Virus record (IMG/VR): IMGVR_UViG_3300021957_000009
Span: 37,047-101,046 of that record
Length of the DNA: 64,000 nucleotides
Direction: 5' to 3' (one strand)
Origin: a virus
The position numbers and the translations under genes are program-made. The notes under the pieces were generated by a model. It ran no database searches, had not been told where the DNA came from, and saw nothing but the letters and a program-made list of their open reading frames with translations. This document shows, piece by piece, positions 37,195 to 49,523 of the stretch (positions within the stretch are counted from its first letter, which is position 1; each line of letters starts with the position of its first letter).

Positions 37195-37642
37195 ATATTA
37201 CTTCAGCCTCTTCAAACATTTTTTTAGTTAATTGTGTAGATTCCACCCATCGTTCTGGCATAGAATCATCTATTTCTGTAGTTACTACTCTTTTGATACC
37301 GACTTGAATAATGCCCTTTGCGCATTCTGAACAAACTGGTAATCCGTGAATGTACATAGTAGCTCCGTCAAGTGATGTACCATTATACGTAGCATTATAT
37401 ATACAGTTCATTTCGGCATGAACTACATGTTGATACTTAACAACTTTGTTTTCATACATCGATTCTTGATCGTCGATTCCTCTAGGAAATCCGTTATAAC
37501 CTTGAGCTAGAACTTGTCCTTTTTCTCCAACAGCCACCGCACCAATCTTTCGTGACGGATCTTTTGACCATGTAGAAATATGTTCGGCTAAAGCTAAATA
37601 GCGTTTATCCCATTTATAAATTTTTGCAGTGTCCCAATTCAT
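37181..37642 (-). CDS. cd: dCMP deaminase
   Basis: Zn-dependent deoxycytidylate deaminase, making dUMP for thymidylate or hydroxymethyl-dUMP synthesis. The zinc site is complete: His75-Ala-Glu77 (HAEMN) and Cys104/Cys107 (PVCSECA). At 153 residues it is shorter than T4 Cd (193). It is adjacent to the ThyA-family hydroxymethylase gene (they share one base), so pyrimidine flow for thymine or a modified base is coordinated. Confidence 0.93.
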   Translation of the reverse strand: MNWDTAKIYKWDKRYLALAEHISTWSKDPSRKIGAVAVGEKGQVLAQGYNGFPRGIDDQESMYENKVVKYQHVVHAEMNCIYNATYNGTSLDGATMYIHGLPVCSECAKGIIQVGIKRVVTTEIDDSMPERWVESTQLTKKMFEEAEVIYDFI

Positions 37643-44110: not shown

Positions 44111-44130
44111 GGGAGAGATCACTCTCTCCC
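44111..44130 (-). terminator. intrinsic terminator of the hsp20 unit
   Basis: Minus strand GGGAGAG, loop AGTGAT, CTCTCCC, followed by AATTTTCC. It ends the late hsp20 transcript before the gp43 control region. Confidence 0.75.
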
Positions 44131-44321: not shown

Positions 44322-44777
44322 CTATTCTTGAATAAATTCCTTCTTCTTTGATGCCCCAGCAGACCCGATTTCGATCTTTCTAGGACGCCTCTCTTCTGGA
44401 ACTTCAACCCTGGCATTCACCACAAGTATCCCATTCACAAGTTCGGCCCCGTCTATTACGACAAATTCAGAGAGTCGAAAGGACTTCTCAAATTTGCGGG
44501 ATGAAATCCCTTTGTGTGCGTATTCACGATCATCATCATCAGAATTTTGACCTTTAATTAATAGAATACCATCCTTTACTTCTACAGAAATGTCTTCTTC
44601 CGAAAATCCTGCAACAGCAAGTTCGATATTGAAGTTATCGTTATCGACCTTTACAACGTTATGTGGGGGATAGTTGTCTTGAGATCTTCCAGCTGAGTGG
44701 ATTCTTTCAAGTTCATTTAATATTGGATCAAATCCAATGAATAGTGAACGCGGTACGTTCATAGTATTTCTTACCAT
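44322..44777 (-). CDS. small heat-shock protein Hsp20 (alpha-crystallin)
   Basis: A 151-residue Hsp20 chaperone with the alpha-crystallin domain: NIELAVAGFSEEDISVEVKDGILLIKG, then FEKSFRLSEF and GAELVNGILVVNARV near the end. It prevents aggregation of host or virion proteins. The ATG at 44777 has AGGAGAAAC upstream; the longer frame to 44837 would translate the structured leader. It is a late gene: TATAAATA lies 62 bases upstream, and the leader carries the hairpin shared with the gene at 46990. Confidence 0.92.
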   Translation of the reverse strand: MVRNTMNVPRSLFIGFDPILNELERIHSAGRSQDNYPPHNVVKVDNDNFNIELAVAGFSEEDISVEVKDGILLIKGQNSDDDDREYAHKGISSRKFEKSFRLSEFVVIDGAELVNGILVVNARVEVPEERRPRKIEIGSAGASKKKEFIQE

Positions 44778-44807
44778 TTTGTTTCTCCTATTTAAAGCAA
44801 GATTAAT

Positions 44808-44837
44808 ATGTGGACCCGACCAATTCGGCATCCACAT
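44808..44837 (-). ncRNA. structured 5' leader motif, copy A (hsp20)
   Basis: Minus-strand RNA forms AUGUGGA / UCCACAU (7 bp) enclosing UGCCGAAUUGGUCGGG, itself a CCGA/UCGG stem with loop AUUGG. The core of 20 bases (44813-44832) is identical to copy B at 47298-47317. It begins within a few bases of the predicted transcript start. Confidence 0.7.
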
Positions 44838-44838
44838 T

Positions 44839-44846
44839 TATTTATA
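44839..44846 (-). promoter_or_regulatory. late promoter TATAAATA (hsp20)
   Basis: Exact TATAAATA on the minus strand; the leader hairpin follows immediately, so it would form the very 5' end of the mRNA. Confidence 0.8.
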
Positions 44847-44858
44847 CAACTCTCGTTG

Positions 44859-44951
44859 CTAGTTTAAACATTTTTTGCAAACTTTATTTAGTCTGCCGGA
44901 CTTCATAAACTTATGAAATGTAGTCCATGCTTTTTTAAGTTTTTTCTCCAT
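44859..44951 (-). CDS. possible 30-residue basic peptide after regA
   Basis: MEKKLKKAWTTFHKFMKSGRLNKVCKKCLN, very basic and ending in a CxxC. The ATG lies inside the end of regA with GGAAATAG upstream. Short length keeps confidence low. It might be a small nucleic-acid-binding peptide or chance. Confidence 0.3.
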   Translation of the reverse strand: MEKKLKKAWTTFHKFMKSGRLNKVCKKCLN

Positions 44952-45324
44952 TATTACTATTTCCTATATTGTATTTAGGACATAGTTGCCATTCTGTTTT
45001 TTCCTTAAATGGAATTACTTTAATCTGTCTTAACGGTGCAATATCTTTAGCTTGATCGGCGGTAACAAAAGTTACGAGTCCCCAATCTGCCAGCAATGTA
45101 GCAATTGTATTCCTACGCTGGATATCGTTCAACATTAGATTAGAAGGTTTCCCATCTAATAAGAATAACTCTTTAAAGTGCACAATAAAGTATCTTCCTT
45201 GTTTGTGCAATATATGACATGATTGGTATAGCTTTTGATCTTTTCTAGACGCCACACCAATTCTGGTTAATGTTTCTCTTATTTTGAGAAAGTCATCTGG
45301 TTCGTTGAGAGTAATCTCCAACAT
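44935..45324 (-). CDS. regA: RegA translational repressor
   Basis: RNA-binding repressor of phage early mRNAs. From Met at 45324 it reads MLEITLNEPDDFLKIRETLTRIGVASRKDQKLYQSCHILHKQGRYFIVHFKE, in line with T4 RegA throughout, ending EWQLCPKYNIGN as in T4. The result is 129 residues (T4 122). A GTG at 45369 would add 15 residues; I prefer the ATG because of the match to T4. It follows the clamp-loader genes as in T4. Confidence 0.93.
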   Translation of the reverse strand: MLEITLNEPDDFLKIRETLTRIGVASRKDQKLYQSCHILHKQGRYFIVHFKELFLLDGKPSNLMLNDIQRRNTIATLLADWGLVTFVTADQAKDIAPLRQIKVIPFKEKTEWQLCPKYNIGNSNNGEKT

Positions 45325-45352
45325 AGAAGCTGGAGTCCACTGGACTTCAATA

Positions 45353-45733
45353 TTATTTTCGTTTTCCACCTTTATACATCCTTAATTTCAATTCGTTAAT
45401 TTGTTCGCCATTTAACAATGACAATACAGATTTAGCTTTTTCATTACTATATCCATAATATTCTTTTATAAGTTCCAAGTTCTCTATGTTGATAGGCTTT
45501 GCCCATTTAGAGAATCTTTTCTTCTTCTTAATTATATTTATAAAAAAATCAAATTGAAGACGATGATCTATATGGTGGTTCACATTCATTTCATTTGCGA
45601 AAAGAATTGTGTCGGGAAAATATGAAAGTCCTCGATTAACCATAAACGATGCGTATGCTTTTTCAGCCACATCATCAACCATTATATCCTTTTTAGTCGT
45701 GTTAATTGCGTTTAGATAATCGAAGGGGCTCAT
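45353..45733 (-). CDS. 62: clamp loader small subunit gp62
   Basis: A 126-residue protein with MSPFDYLNAINTTKKDIM..DDVAEKAYASFMVNRGLSYFPDTILFANEMN, the typical gp62 opening, and a basic FSKWAKP segment. It forms the 4:1 loader with gp44 that places gp45 on DNA. It is shorter than T4 gp62 (187). Its start overlaps the gp44 stop by four bases. Confidence 0.9.
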   Translation of the reverse strand: MSPFDYLNAINTTKKDIMVDDVAEKAYASFMVNRGLSYFPDTILFANEMNVNHHIDHRLQFDFFINIIKKKKRFSKWAKPINIENLELIKEYYGYSNEKAKSVLSLLNGEQINELKLRMYKGGKRK

Positions 45734-46665
45734 TTGAATGAAACCCCAGCCATTACCTCAGTAAGACAAGCAACTGTATTAAGTTCGTGATCTGCAACAA
45801 ACGAATTCTTATATTGATAGTCCGCTAGAATAAGTACCAGTTGTGGTATACTCTGAGGATCAATATAGTCATTCATGTTATCGTATATTTTACGATAAAT
45901 TGCTGCAGGTTCAGAATCAATATTGTTACTTACCCACTGACGCATACCTTTAAAGTTCTTCTGCTTCAAGTGGATCATAAGATCATTGAGAGATACCTCC
46001 GATAAAGATACTAAAATGCCTGTGTCAATAGTACCACTACTTCCATAACGCTGAAGCTCATTAAGAACTTTACGCCAATCAGGCATGTGTTTCATTATTA
46101 ATTCAGCAACAACTTTCTCATCATAATCAATACCTTCATCTTTTAGGATGTTAGTACATCTTTTGAGAAATTGCCCACAAAGTGGAGCTGCTTGTTTTTT
46201 AGAAACATTAAACTCAATTGTAGTACAACGAGAATGCAATGGTTCAATGATTCGATTCTTGAAATTGCATGTCAATATAAATCGACAATTATTCGAGAAC
46301 TCTTCAATAAAACCACGCAATGCGGGTTGTGTCGATTGAGCGTTGAGATAATCTGCTTCATCAAGGATAACTACCTTGTAACCACCTTGTAGTGAAACAG
46401 TAGATGCAAACTGCTTAATTTTGTTTCTAAGCGTATCGATGCCAGACTCTTCGGATCCATTGATCAAAAGATAATCCAAGTCAAGTTCATTGCACAAAGC
46501 TTTCGCAACTGTTGTTTTACCTAAGCCGGCTGTCCCGGTAAGAAGCATATTGTGTAGGTCACCTCCTCTAACAATATCTTCAAAAGTTTTCTTGATTGAT
46601 TTCGGTAAAATACAATCTTGAATTTTTTGTGGTCGATATTTTTCAACCCAAAGAAATTCTGACAT
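45730..46665 (-). CDS. 44: clamp loader large subunit gp44
   Basis: AAA+ ATPase of the RFC/DnaX type. It starts MSEFLWVEKYRPQKIQ, then Walker A GTAGLGKT, Walker B VVILDEADYL, sensor 1 LTCNFKNRI and the SRC motif HSRC. 311 residues (T4 319). The ATG at 46665 has GGGAGG upstream and overlaps the stop of the upstream gene (TAATG); the frame opens further upstream without a site. Confidence 0.95.
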   Translation of the reverse strand: MSEFLWVEKYRPQKIQDCILPKSIKKTFEDIVRGGDLHNMLLTGTAGLGKTTVAKALCNELDLDYLLINGSEESGIDTLRNKIKQFASTVSLQGGYKVVILDEADYLNAQSTQPALRGFIEEFSNNCRFILTCNFKNRIIEPLHSRCTTIEFNVSKKQAAPLCGQFLKRCTNILKDEGIDYDEKVVAELIMKHMPDWRKVLNELQRYGSSGTIDTGILVSLSEVSLNDLMIHLKQKNFKGMRQWVSNNIDSEPAAIYRKIYDNMNDYIDPQSIPQLVLILADYQYKNSFVADHELNTVACLTEVMAGVSFK

Positions 46666-46922
46666 TATAGTACCTCCCAACCAAGAACTGTGTTTACACG
46701 AAACGATCTCCATGCGTCTTTATCCAGAGACCAAACAGCTAAGTGCTCAGTTTCTGAACTAACGTTTTCGATAACAGCTTGTACGCCATTAGCTTTGAGA
46801 ACAGTAGGGTTGAGAGAACAAGGCATGACTCGAACTTCTTCTGAGTCAATCTTTTGAAAGGTCACCGTGACAGTACCTTTCTTTAGCGCTTCGATTAAGC
46901 GTGTTAATTCATTGCGATCCAT
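46665..46922 (-). CDS. DUF2693/WYL_2-like small beta-barrel protein
   Basis: An 85-residue protein, VTVTFQKIDSEEVRVMPCSLNP...HLAVWSLDKDAWRSFRVNTVLGWE. The TF.K.DG/S..R.M.C.L and D...WRSFRV segments are those of the DUF2693/WYL_2 family of small Sm- or SH3-like barrels in phages. Coupled to gp44 by TAATG. Function unknown. Confidence 0.8.
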   Translation of the reverse strand: MDRNELTRLIEALKKGTVTVTFQKIDSEEVRVMPCSLNPTVLKANGVQAVIENVSSETEHLAVWSLDKDAWRSFRVNTVLGWEVL

Positions 46923-46953
46923 AATATATCCTTCATAATAAAATTAATAAAAT

Positions 46954-46972
46954 GCGAGGGAGCTACCCCCGC
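46954..46972 (-). terminator. intrinsic terminator
   Basis: Minus strand GCGGGGG, loop TAGCT, CCCTCGC (one G-U), followed by ATTTTATTAATTTT. It ends the short late transcript of the 90-residue gene. Confidence 0.75.
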
Positions 46973-46989
46973 AATAAGCTAGTTCGAAA

Positions 46990-47262
46990 TTAAGCTTCTT
47001 CAGCTTCAACTTCTTCCGGAAGATCGGAACCTGCTGGTACCATACCTTCTGGAGTTTCTTGCCCTTGAGCTTCAGACGCAGCATTTAGAAACGCTACTGT
47101 CTTATTTCTTAGACCACCAACAGCTTCCAACTCAGCGCCTTCAAAACCACCTCTTTTAGAACAGATATCGATAATCTGTACGAAAGTTGAGATGTCTTGT
47201 AGAGACAATTGTGGAGCTTGTTGCTCTTCTGCACCTTCAGGTGCCATTACTTCTTCAGTCAT
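46990..47262 (-). CDS. conserved 90-residue late protein, unknown
   Basis: An acidic protein with a central conserved helix pair (LQDISTFVQIIDICSKRGGFEGAELEAVGGLRNKTVAFLNAA) between disordered Glu/Pro/Gln-rich ends. I recall the same core in cyanophage-type myoviruses without function. It is a single-gene late unit: TATAAATA promoter, structured leader shared with hsp20, AAAGGAGAAG ribosome site and its own terminator. This suggests strong, separately tuned expression, perhaps a virion or assembly protein. Confidence 0.8.
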   Translation of the reverse strand: MTEEVMAPEGAEEQQAPQLSLQDISTFVQIIDICSKRGGFEGAELEAVGGLRNKTVAFLNAASEAQGQETPEGMVPAGSDLPEEVEAEEA

Positions 47263-47293
47263 TTTCTTCTCCTTTGCAAAGTAGACTAATTAT

Positions 47294-47323
47294 GAGAGAC
47301 CCGACCAATTCGGCATCTTCTCT
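47294..47323 (-). ncRNA. structured 5' leader motif, copy B (90-residue gene)
   Basis: Minus-strand RNA AGAGAAGA / UCUCUC (6 bp with a bulged A) encloses the same UGCCGAAUUGGUCGGG core as copy A. The lower stem differs completely in sequence from copy A but still pairs, which is covariation in favour of a real RNA structure. Confidence 0.7.
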
Positions 47324-47330
47324 TATTATC

Positions 47331-47346
47331 CTCATAATATTATGAG
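47331..47346. repeat. perfect 16-base palindrome in the late leader
   Basis: CTCATAATATTATGAG is self-complementary and lies 20 bases after the TATAAATA, upstream of leader motif B. It can form an 8-bp hairpin only with a very tight loop, or act as a DNA site. Confidence 0.55.
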
Positions 47347-47365
47347 AATTTTTTCTGTGCATAGT

Positions 47366-47373
47366 TATTTATA
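47366..47373 (-). promoter_or_regulatory. late promoter TATAAATA inside the gp45 stop
   Basis: The last codons of gp45 read GGT GTA TAA, and that TAA is part of TATAAATA. So the clamp gene ends in the late promoter of the next unit, compact coding of a promoter that itself needs gp45. Confidence 0.8.
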
Positions 47374-48095: not shown

Positions 48096-48380
48096 TTATT
48101 TTGAGTTAGACCTATCGTGCTCATAAAGCGCAAGTAATCCATAATGTAGTACCTTCATAAGATCTTTTCTATGATCATCTGAAGTTCCTTTCTTACCATA
48201 CCTAGCATTATATTTGTCAACATTTCCAAGGAAAAATCCAAGGCCATGGCCACGATCAATTATTACTTCGGAAGATTGTAATCCCCCTTGGCCATAATGC
48301 TGTCCGTACGTAGAATCGATATACGATTGGAACTCTTTAATAAGAGCTCCTTCGTTAAATTTGTAATTAGGCTGTTTCAT
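48096..48380 (-). CDS. DUF3310-like protein
   Basis: A 94-residue protein, MKQPNYKFNEGALIKEFQSYIDSTYGQHYGQG..QSSEVIID, then GNVDKYNARYGKKGTSDDHRKDLMKVLHYGLLALYEH. The GNV.KY..RYG.K....DL.K..HY pattern is that of DUF3310, also found in T7 gp1.7 nucleotide kinase. ATG 48380 has AGAGGAAA upstream and overlaps the MoxR-type gene. Enzyme function is not assured. Confidence 0.7.
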   Translation of the reverse strand: MKQPNYKFNEGALIKEFQSYIDSTYGQHYGQGGLQSSEVIIDRGHGLGFFLGNVDKYNARYGKKGTSDDHRKDLMKVLHYGLLALYEHDRSNSK

Positions 48381-49491
48381 TAATTTCCTCTTCAATGTTT
48401 AATACGCCATCATCGACCTTTGTGTAAAGATCTAAGAAAGCTGACTTAGTGTCGTCATCAAACCTAGCAATACATAAGTCAATCGCCTTAGCTCTATTCT
48501 TAAAGATAGAGAAAGTTTGTGCGATGTGACAAAGCCTTCTAGTTGAAATAACTTCATCTACTCCGTCATCATAGAATGTTTTTCTAATAATGTCTGCCCA
48601 TGTAACTAGCTTTTCAACAAAGTCAGTATCTTCTGTACCGAACTTAGTCATATGATTGTTAAGTATTTTAGTTTCGATAGATGGTGATGGAAACTTCTGA
48701 TCAATCGCAACAGTAAACCTTTCTAAGAAAGCTTCGTCAATGATTGAAGCAGCAGTAAACCTACCATCTTCTGATCCTTTACCTTTAGTATTCGCAGTTG
48801 CTATAACATTGAAGCCAGGCGCAGGAGTAATTGTTTCACCCGTTTTTTTAACGAGAACAGGTTTACCTTCAAGAATACCTTGAAGACACATAATTTTATT
48901 TGTAGCTCTATCAATTTCGTCGAGAAGAAGGATCGCGCCATTCTCCATCGCTTTAAGAACCGGTCCTTTAGAGAATACAGTCTCTCCGTTAATAAGTCTA
49001 AATCCACCAAGTAAATCATCCTCGTCAGTTTCAGGGTTAATTTGAACCCTTATAAATTCTCTGTTTAGTTTTGAACAAGCTTGCTCTACCATAAAAGTTT
49101 TACCATTTCCAGATAAACCAGAAACGTATACAGGATAGAACATCTGCGATTTAATCATTTTTACAACATCGTGAAATGCTCCCCATGGAACAAACGTTGG
49201 ATCCGCTTTTGCGAATGATTTTTCTTCGTTAACGATCGATTGCATTTTTGCTGCAGACGAAATGTCTATCACCTTATTGTCAACCTCTACAGTTTGTAGT
49301 AAAGCGCTTAAATCATAAGTGCCTATTTTGACTCTTGTTTCTGCGGTAAGCATAGGATAAAAGTCTTTTCCTGTGTAACCCATGGACTTTGCCGTGGATT
49401 CAATCACGTTCTTTCTGAACGCAGTTTGATCTGGATAATTTGTAGCCAGTTCTTTTAAAATATTTTGTGTTGAGATTTTCATATCTTTCAT
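48367..49491 (-). CDS. cobS: MoxR/CobS-type AAA+ ATPase
   Basis: AAA+ ATPase with Walker A GLSGNGKT, Walker B ILLLDEIDRA, sensor 1 VIATANTKG and an arginine-finger LERF. Closest type is CobS/MoxR, which remodels partners carrying a VWA domain; such a partner is the next gene upstream. It starts MKDMKISTQN with AAGGAAC before the ATG; the frame opens at a TTG six codons earlier. CobS genes are common in cyanophages and are often linked to cobalamin, but MoxR-like remodelling is equally possible. Confidence 0.85.
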   Translation of the reverse strand: MKDMKISTQNILKELATNYPDQTAFRKNVIESTAKSMGYTGKDFYPMLTAETRVKIGTYDLSALLQTVEVDNKVIDISSAAKMQSIVNEEKSFAKADPTFVPWGAFHDVVKMIKSQMFYPVYVSGLSGNGKTFMVEQACSKLNREFIRVQINPETDEDDLLGGFRLINGETVFSKGPVLKAMENGAILLLDEIDRATNKIMCLQGILEGKPVLVKKTGETITPAPGFNVIATANTKGKGSEDGRFTAASIIDEAFLERFTVAIDQKFPSPSIETKILNNHMTKFGTEDTDFVEKLVTWADIIRKTFYDDGVDEVISTRRLCHIAQTFSIFKNRAKAIDLCIARFDDDTKSAFLDLYTKVDDGVLNIEEEINETA

Positions 49492-49523
49492 AATGTAGTT
49501 CCTTATCAATTGTGTATGTGTAT

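What the first reader, a model, noticed from the sequence alone, without database searches (positions are those of the whole stretch)
44808..47323. Shared structured RNA leader in two late genes
The hsp20 leader (44808-44837) and the leader of the 90-residue gene (47294-47323) contain the same 20-base core, folded as a CCGA/UCGG stem with an AUUGG loop. The lower stems have unrelated sequences (GUGGA/UCCAC versus GAGAaGA/UCUCUC) yet both pair. Identity of the core and covariation of the stem argue for an RNA element. Both genes also have TATAAATA promoters and are ended by their own terminators. It may be a protein-binding site (for example RegA or another phage RNA-binding protein), a stabiliser, or a ligand or temperature sensor.
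Basis: seen in the sequence. Interest (0 to 1): 0.8.

Follow-up and report, generated by a model that had tools for sequence, protein, structure and literature searches.

The report
Phage heat-shock gene RNA thermometer leader
The shared hairpin is the first half of a ROSE-type leader, a kind of RNA that in bacteria opens with heat to let a small heat-shock protein be made; here it sits exactly at the start of the heat-shock-protein message across T4-like ocean phages, and this phage group also uses the hairpin on a second, unknown gene.

Summary
In detail: the 20-mer GATGCCGAATTGGTCGGGTC occurs exactly twice in the 101-kb record and pairs in both leaders. [quoted passage not shown] In the record, Rfam ROSE_3 has only two matches, these two leaders (31.4 and 20.5 bits), both below its gathering score of 43. 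Downstream lies the ROSE anti-Shine-Dalgarno CUUGCU, able to pair AGGAG with a bulged G. A model trained only on hsp20 leaders finds the element in 90 of 91 related hsp20 loci and independently finds the 90-residue gene's leader. Hairpin I covaries heavily (8 of 9 pairs change on both sides). What stays fixed is a bulged G between a Y:R pair and a C-G pair, the same U-G-C/G-G motif as in the SD hairpin, so the leader holds two ROSE-type modules in tandem. In 82 hsp20 leaders pairing switches on at the 6th base after TATAAATA, the expected late start: the hairpin opens the transcript. The 90-residue gene carries hairpin I inside a three-hairpin leader that also occludes its SD. Thermosensing itself is inferred; folding calculations did not discriminate it. 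No open paper found reports ROSE in phages.

The parts
44839..44846 (-). T4-type late promoter TATAAATA of hsp20
   Evidence: TATAAATA or TATATATA 8-14 nt before the bulged G in 82 related hsp20 leaders
44833..44833 (-). predicted transcription start of hsp20 (6th base after the box, G)
   Evidence: lower-stem pairing jumps from 56% at the 5th to 89% at the 6th base after the box in 82 leaders; G in 72 of 82
44808..44837 (-). hairpin I of the hsp20 leader; about 44812-44833 lies within the predicted transcript; bulged G at 44829
44796..44801 (-). ROSE anti-SD CUUGCU, bulged G
   Evidence: Rfam ROSE_3 alignment; five pairs with AGGAG near-invariant in relatives; predicted SD hairpin
44785..44789 (-). 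Shine-Dalgarno AGGAG of hsp20, paired with the anti-SD
44322..44777 (-). hsp20 (151 aa small heat-shock protein)
   Evidence: PHROG 432 E 7.8e-36; Pfam PF00011 E 1.6e-17
44111..44130 (-). terminator-like hairpin downstream of hsp20
47366..47373 (-). late promoter TATAAATA of the 90-residue gene (overlaps the end of gp45)
47328..47349 (-). extra upstream hairpin (CUCAU...AUGAG) in the 90-residue leader
47294..47322 (-). hairpin I of the 90-residue leader; bulged G at 47314
47265..47285 (-). SD hairpin UCU-A-CUUU-GCAAA-GGAG-A-AGA of the 90-residue gene
   Evidence: palindrome CTTTGCAAAG / CTATGCATAG / CTTTGATCAAAG in relatives
46990..47262 (-). 90-residue acidic protein gene between genes 45 and 44, function unknown
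   Evidence: PHROG 13789 unknown function; no Pfam or PDB match; predicted two-helix core
46953..46973 (-). terminator-like hairpin after the 90-residue gene

Best explanation
The hsp20 leader is a two-hairpin ROSE-like translation gate under a phage late promoter. Shown by sequence: hairpin I starts at the predicted first transcribed base, covaries strongly and keeps only a bulged G flanked by a Y:R pair and a C-G pair; hairpin II can pair the Shine-Dalgarno AGGAG with CUUGCU around a second bulged G. Inferred: hairpin II keeps hsp20 translation low until warmth (or removal of a bound repressor, most plausibly Hsp20 itself when it is drawn off by unfolded proteins) opens it, while the stable 5'-terminal hairpin I protects the message and helps fold or presents the same bulged-G motif to a binder. 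In this phage clade hairpin I is also part of a three-hairpin leader of a 90-residue gene whose SD is occluded by its own hairpin, so that gene is probably controlled together with hsp20.
For: Rfam ROSE_3 in the 101-kb record: only two matches at E<=1, the two leaders (31.4 bits E 5.7e-6; 20.5 bits E 0.0032); ROSE_3 consensus has the same bulged-G first hairpin and the CUcGCu/aGgAG second hairpin. Model R1, trained on 42 hsp20 leaders without any 90-residue leader: own record hsp20 67.5 bits (this leader was in the training set), 90-residue leader 30.5 bits (E 2.8e-5), next best 12.5 bits; 90 of 91 related hsp20 loci; 50 of 50 90-residue loci; in eight of nine marine T4-like isolates at the hsp20 leader and absent from S-TIM5. 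Covariation on a sequence-only alignment: 80 double-changed cells versus 24.7 shuffled and at most 30 slid. Bulged base is G in 119 of 121 leaders, the two exceptions being wrong picks. Pair below the bulge: UG 77/CG 10/UA 1 in hairpin I, UG 77/CG 11 in the SD hairpin, the motif seen in a ROSE-like crystal structure (U.G wobble, bulged G, C-G; PMC11342760). Short two-hairpin ROSE-like leaders are proven thermometers in Pseudomonas ibpA (PMC3669281). Start-site geometry. Gene-blind pattern scan: 65 of 71 hits are, or look like, hsp20 leaders; the other six look like chance matches.
Against: No expression, probing or melting data. Rfam gathering scores are not reached. Nearest-neighbour folding does not separate these leaders from ordinary genes: over 94 leaders SD unpaired 0.45 at 15 C to 0.59 at 45 C, versus 0.44 to 0.50 in 22 control genes; for the window leader the result depends on the stretch folded (0.11 to 0.74 from 10 to 40 C in one, about 0.8 throughout in another). 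The 90-residue SD hairpin is not a canonical ROSE module and shows no predicted temperature response. The residue needed for mRNA binding by E. coli IbpA (R93) is R in 85 and K in 33 of 118 phage Hsp20; K abolishes it in E. coli (PMC10474464).
Confidence: 0.7

Rival explanations
1. Autogenous protein control is the main function: phage Hsp20 oligomers bind the bulged-G modules and block translation; when clients occupy Hsp20 both hsp20 and the 90-residue gene are released. Temperature melting is secondary.
For: E. coli IbpA represses its own translation by binding its structured 5'UTR (PMC10474464). The equivalent aromatic residue (Y34) is kept in 118 of 118 phage Hsp20 and R93 in 85 of 118. 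Fixed bulged G with freely varying stems looks like a recognition feature. The second gene shares hairpin I but not the ROSE SD module.
Against: K at the R93 position in 33 of 118. In most phages only hsp20 has the element. No binding data; stem sequences of the two leaders in one genome are not matched, so there is no sign of fine sequence co-evolution.
Confidence: 0.35
2. Hairpin I is only a 5'-terminal stabiliser of a late mRNA (blocking 5'-end-dependent decay); no sensing.
For: In hsp20 leaders pairing begins exactly at the predicted first base; PMC3669281 suggests stabilisation for Pseudomonas hairpin I.
Against: A stabiliser needs no invariant bulged G; hairpin I in the 90-residue transcript is about 40 bases from the predicted 5' end; it does not explain the invariant CUUGCU/AGGAG pairing.
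Confidence: 0.15
3. Binding site of RegA or another phage translational repressor.
For: regA lies directly upstream of hsp20 here and in S-CAM7 and P-HM1.
Against: The same hairpin and anti-SD occur in bacterial hsp20/ibpA leaders that have no RegA and in hsp20 leaders of non-T4-like jumbo phages (L093, L094).
Confidence: 0.05
4. DNA-level element (operator or downstream promoter part), or chance duplication between the two leaders.
For: It overlaps the start region of a late promoter.
Against: Compensatory changes in both stems; pairing restricted to predicted transcribed positions; the second copy is about 50 bases downstream of its promoter; conserved across many divergent phages.
Confidence: 0.02

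Closest known systems
ROSE_3 (Rfam RF02523), ROSE-like RNA thermometers
   Same: Leader of a small heat-shock gene; first hairpin GAUGCC..GGGUC with bulged G; second hairpin pairing UYGCU with AGGAG around a bulged G.
   Different: Score 31.4 bits, below the gathering score of 43; late phage promoter; more AU-rich second hairpin; hairpin I opens the transcript.
Short two-hairpin ROSE-like thermometers of Pseudomonas ibpA (PMC3669281)
   Same: About 60 nt, two hairpins, conserved stable hairpin I and labile SD hairpin with U(U/C)GCU.
   Different: Host sigma-32 promoter; temperature response proven there, not tested here; phage hairpin I sequence varies widely around a fixed bulged G.
Enterobacterial ROSE_2 (Rfam RF01832), ibpA
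   Same: Salmonella hairpin next to the SD hairpin is GGCCU-G-UCC..GGA-AGGUC, also with a bulged G.
   Different: Further upstream hairpins; longer leader.
RNA thermometers known in phages: lambda cIII, SPbeta blyA, sigma-70 fourU (PMC11182007)
   Same: Phage-encoded translational control by a 5' leader.
   Different: According to that paper those are fourU-type or other; none is ROSE-type or in a T4-like late gene.
IbpA autoregulation through its ROSE 5'UTR (PMC10474464)
   Same: Small heat-shock protein whose mRNA has a ROSE leader; key residues largely kept.
   Different: Binding not tested for phage Hsp20; K replaces the essential R in 28% of the phage proteins compared.

Membership tests
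ROSE-like RNA thermometer | Lies in the 5' leader of a small heat-shock gene (hsp20/ibpA) | tested here: met
   hsp20 by PHROG and Pfam; 90 of 91 related hsp20 loci carry it
ROSE-like RNA thermometer | U(U/C)GCU pairing with the Shine-Dalgarno around a bulged G | tested here: met
   CUUGCU with AGGAG, 98.9% of cells paired, U.G or C-G below the bulge
ROSE-like RNA thermometer | Two to four hairpins, the last holding the SD | tested here: met
   hsp20: two hairpins; 90-residue gene: three
ROSE_3 (RF02523) | Reaches the curated gathering score (43 bits) | tested here: not met
   31.4 and 20.5 bits; best of the records tested 35.5
ROSE-like RNA thermometer | SD opens and translation rises with temperature | not testable with these tools
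   Energy-model folding inconclusive
ROSE-like RNA thermometer (90-residue leader) | U(U/C)GCU anti-SD with bulged G on the SD | tested here: not met
   SD pairs with CUUU; third pair of the ROSE module not formed in 24 of 25 rows
IbpA-type autoregulated leader | Protein binds its own leader | not testable with these tools
   Only residue conservation checked: aromatic 118/118, R 85/118
T4-type late transcription unit | TATAAATA about 6 bases before the start | tested here: met
   (start site inferred, not mapped)

The most novel reading that the evidence does not exclude
Marine T4-like phages run a small chaperone regulon: hairpins with the same U-G-C/G-G bulged-G module act as binding sites for the phage's own Hsp20, which gates its own message and, in this clade, a second late protein; the ROSE 'thermometer' is then chiefly a chaperone-occupancy sensor with two docking modules, which would explain the long unexplained hairpin I of ROSE leaders.
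Probability: 0.25. Interest if true: 0.8.

Novelty: new variant of a known kind. Interest (0 to 1): 0.62.

Why it matters
hsp20 is a core gene of T4-like cyanophages, among the commonest viruses in the sea; the evidence implies that its translation is gated by a ROSE-type leader in most marine T4-like phages sampled, and the paper read on phage thermometers lists only three, none of ROSE type. The role of the 5' hairpin in ROSE leaders is described as not fully understood (PMC3669281). The phage alignments show that everything in that hairpin may vary except a bulged G and its two flanking pairs, the same module as on the Shine-Dalgarno, and that one phage clade reuses it on another gene. That makes its function (docking site, folding aid or 5' cap) directly testable with point mutants.

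Tried and rejected
Rfam at gathering threshold: only a tRNA in the window. manA-type leader (recalled from memory): no match at E<=1. L028, an exact 18-mer copy: inside a coding region, chance. Matched stem sequences of the two leaders within a genome as a sign of co-evolution: not found. Nearest-neighbour thermal folding: did not discriminate. Distant jumbo-phage homologues of the 90-residue protein: no hairpin in their leaders. Second R1 match in Atu_ph07: intergenic on the wrong strand. R1 in six bacterial genomes: too weak to rise above background. Fold of the 90-residue protein against PDB: no significant match. Blastn of the leader against phage records: nothing. A third bulged-G hairpin at 37239-37267 is coding. 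A first script for 90-residue leader melting failed on a naming error and was not rerun.

Full report
WHAT IS THERE. The window is part of a 101-kb T4-like marine phage record. On the minus strand the order is gene 45, a 90-residue gene, an 85-residue gene, 44, 62, regA, hsp20, 43.

IT IS WIDESPREAD AND TIED TO HSP20. A scan of viral contigs with the 18-base core gave 52 stretches and, with the two from the record itself, 62 copies; all but one lead either hsp20 genes, some only 37-50% identical to this one, or the 90-residue gene. A gene-blind scan with a looser pattern gave 71 newly fetched stretches: 58 hsp20 leaders, 7 truncated ones that look like hsp20 leaders, 6 apparent chance matches. 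Isolated marine T4-like phages (C48C1, Melnitz, Mosig, HTVC008M, S-CAM8, P-SSM3, S-CAM7, P-HM1) have the same hairpin with other loops (UUCG, AUAA) in front of hsp20; S-TIM5 does not.

IT IS THE FIRST HAIRPIN OF A ROSE-LIKE LEADER. With permissive settings Rfam's ROSE_3 aligns end to end with the hsp20 leaders, including a bulged G in the first hairpin and CUcGCu pairing with aGgAG in the second. In the whole record its only two matches at E<=1 are the two leaders. Gathering scores are not met.

A MODEL OF OUR OWN. From 42 divergent hsp20 leaders aligned by sequence only (A2) I built R1. Hairpin I: 8 of 9 pairs change on both sides, 80 double-changed cells against 24.7 in shuffles and 13-30 when slid; with 91 aligned matches 215 against 48 (that alignment is fitted to the model). 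R1, which saw no 90-residue leader, finds that leader in the record at 30.5 bits, E 2.8e-5, the next match being 12.5 bits, and in 50 of 50 related 90-residue loci, where hairpin I again covaries (7 of 9 pairs). It finds 90 of 91 hsp20 loci; the one without a match, L151, keeps hairpin I but has lost CUUGCU.

THE FIXED FEATURE IS A BULGED G. In 121 distinct hsp20 leaders the bulged base is G in 119, and the two exceptions are wrong hairpin picks whose true hairpin also has G. Below it the pair is U.G, C-G or U-A, above it C-G or rarely U-A. The Shine-Dalgarno hairpin has the same local motif with almost the same counts (UG 77/CG 11 against UG 77/CG 10/UA 1). It is the motif seen in a ROSE-like crystal structure: U.G wobble, bulged G, C-G (PMC11342760). 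So the leader holds two such modules in tandem, only one of them on the SD. Salmonella ibpA (GGCCU-G-UCC..GGA-AGGUC) and several bacterial hsp20 leaders (L071, L072, L084, L414, L440) have the same first hairpin, so the feature is not confined to phages. The bacterial sample is small: in the second, narrow screen only 6 of 37 loci passed.

WHERE THE TRANSCRIPT STARTS. In 82 hsp20 leaders with a late box the chance that a lower-stem position pairs is 35-56% for the five bases after the box and 89-100% from the sixth on; the sixth is G in 72. T4 late transcripts start about there (own knowledge). The hairpin therefore begins with the predicted first transcribed base, which supports an RNA role and a 5'-terminal hairpin. 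In the 90-residue unit TATAAATA is about 50 bases further up, and the transcript would hold an extra hairpin, then hairpin I, then an SD hairpin UCU-A-CUUU-GCAAA-GGAG-A-AGA, whose palindrome changes in step in relatives (CTTTGCAAAG, CTATGCATAG).

MECHANISM. Shown: structure, covariation, location, gene association. Inferred: hairpin II holds back hsp20 translation and opens with warmth, as proven for the two-hairpin Pseudomonas leaders (PMC3669281); hairpin I stabilises or presents a binding module. E. coli IbpA binds its own leader and needs Y34 and R93 (PMC10474464); the phage proteins keep the aromatic residue in 118 of 118 and R in 85, with K in 33, which is suggestive but not decisive. 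Thermal folding in silico was inconclusive: for the window leader SD exposure rises from 0.11 at 10 C to 0.74 at 40 C with one choice of ends but not with another, and over 94 leaders the rise is small.

THE SECOND GENE. The 90-residue protein is acidic, of unknown function (PHROG 13789), without Pfam or PDB relatives; its predicted core is two helices with no significant fold match. It sits in its own late unit with a terminator. Related jumbo-phage proteins lack the hairpin, so joining the control is a trait of this clade.

NOVELTY. Five of my searches of the open-access library bore on ROSE or RNA thermometers in phages; none turned up a paper reporting a ROSE element in a phage; one paper lists only lambda cIII, SPbeta blyA and a sigma-70 fourU element as phage thermometers (PMC11182007). 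I rate it a new variant of a known kind. Subscription papers could not be checked.

Noticed in passing
47328-47349 (minus strand): A conserved inverted repeat CTCAT...ATGAG followed by GGATAAT lies between the late promoter and hairpin I of the 90-residue leader in most of the clade; it could be a further leader hairpin, an operator or part of a second promoter.
   Followed up: partly
46665-46922 (minus strand): The 85-residue gene between the 90-residue gene and gene 44 matches Pfam WYL_2 (E 3.2e-7).
   Followed up: no
L151 (hsp20 start 1492) and L336 (match at 108-128): hsp20 leaders that keep hairpin I but have lost the CUUGCU anti-SD: a natural experiment separating the two halves.
   Followed up: no
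L067, L068, L069, L070: Phage-like contigs binned into bacterial genomes (a Rhodobacteraceae bin, a gammaproteobacterial MAG, a Planctomycetaceae MAG): hsp20 72-92% identical to this phage's, with the phage leader.
   Followed up: partly
L414: hsp20 leader of a 1.4-Mb genome in the class of L071 is built just like the phage one (GUAUU-G-CCU..AGG-GAUAC, CUUGCU..AGGAG), a possible source or recipient of the phage gene.
   Followed up: no
48367-49509 (minus strand): ATPase gene matching PHROG 249 (labelled porphyrin biosynthesis) upstream of gene 45.
   Followed up: no
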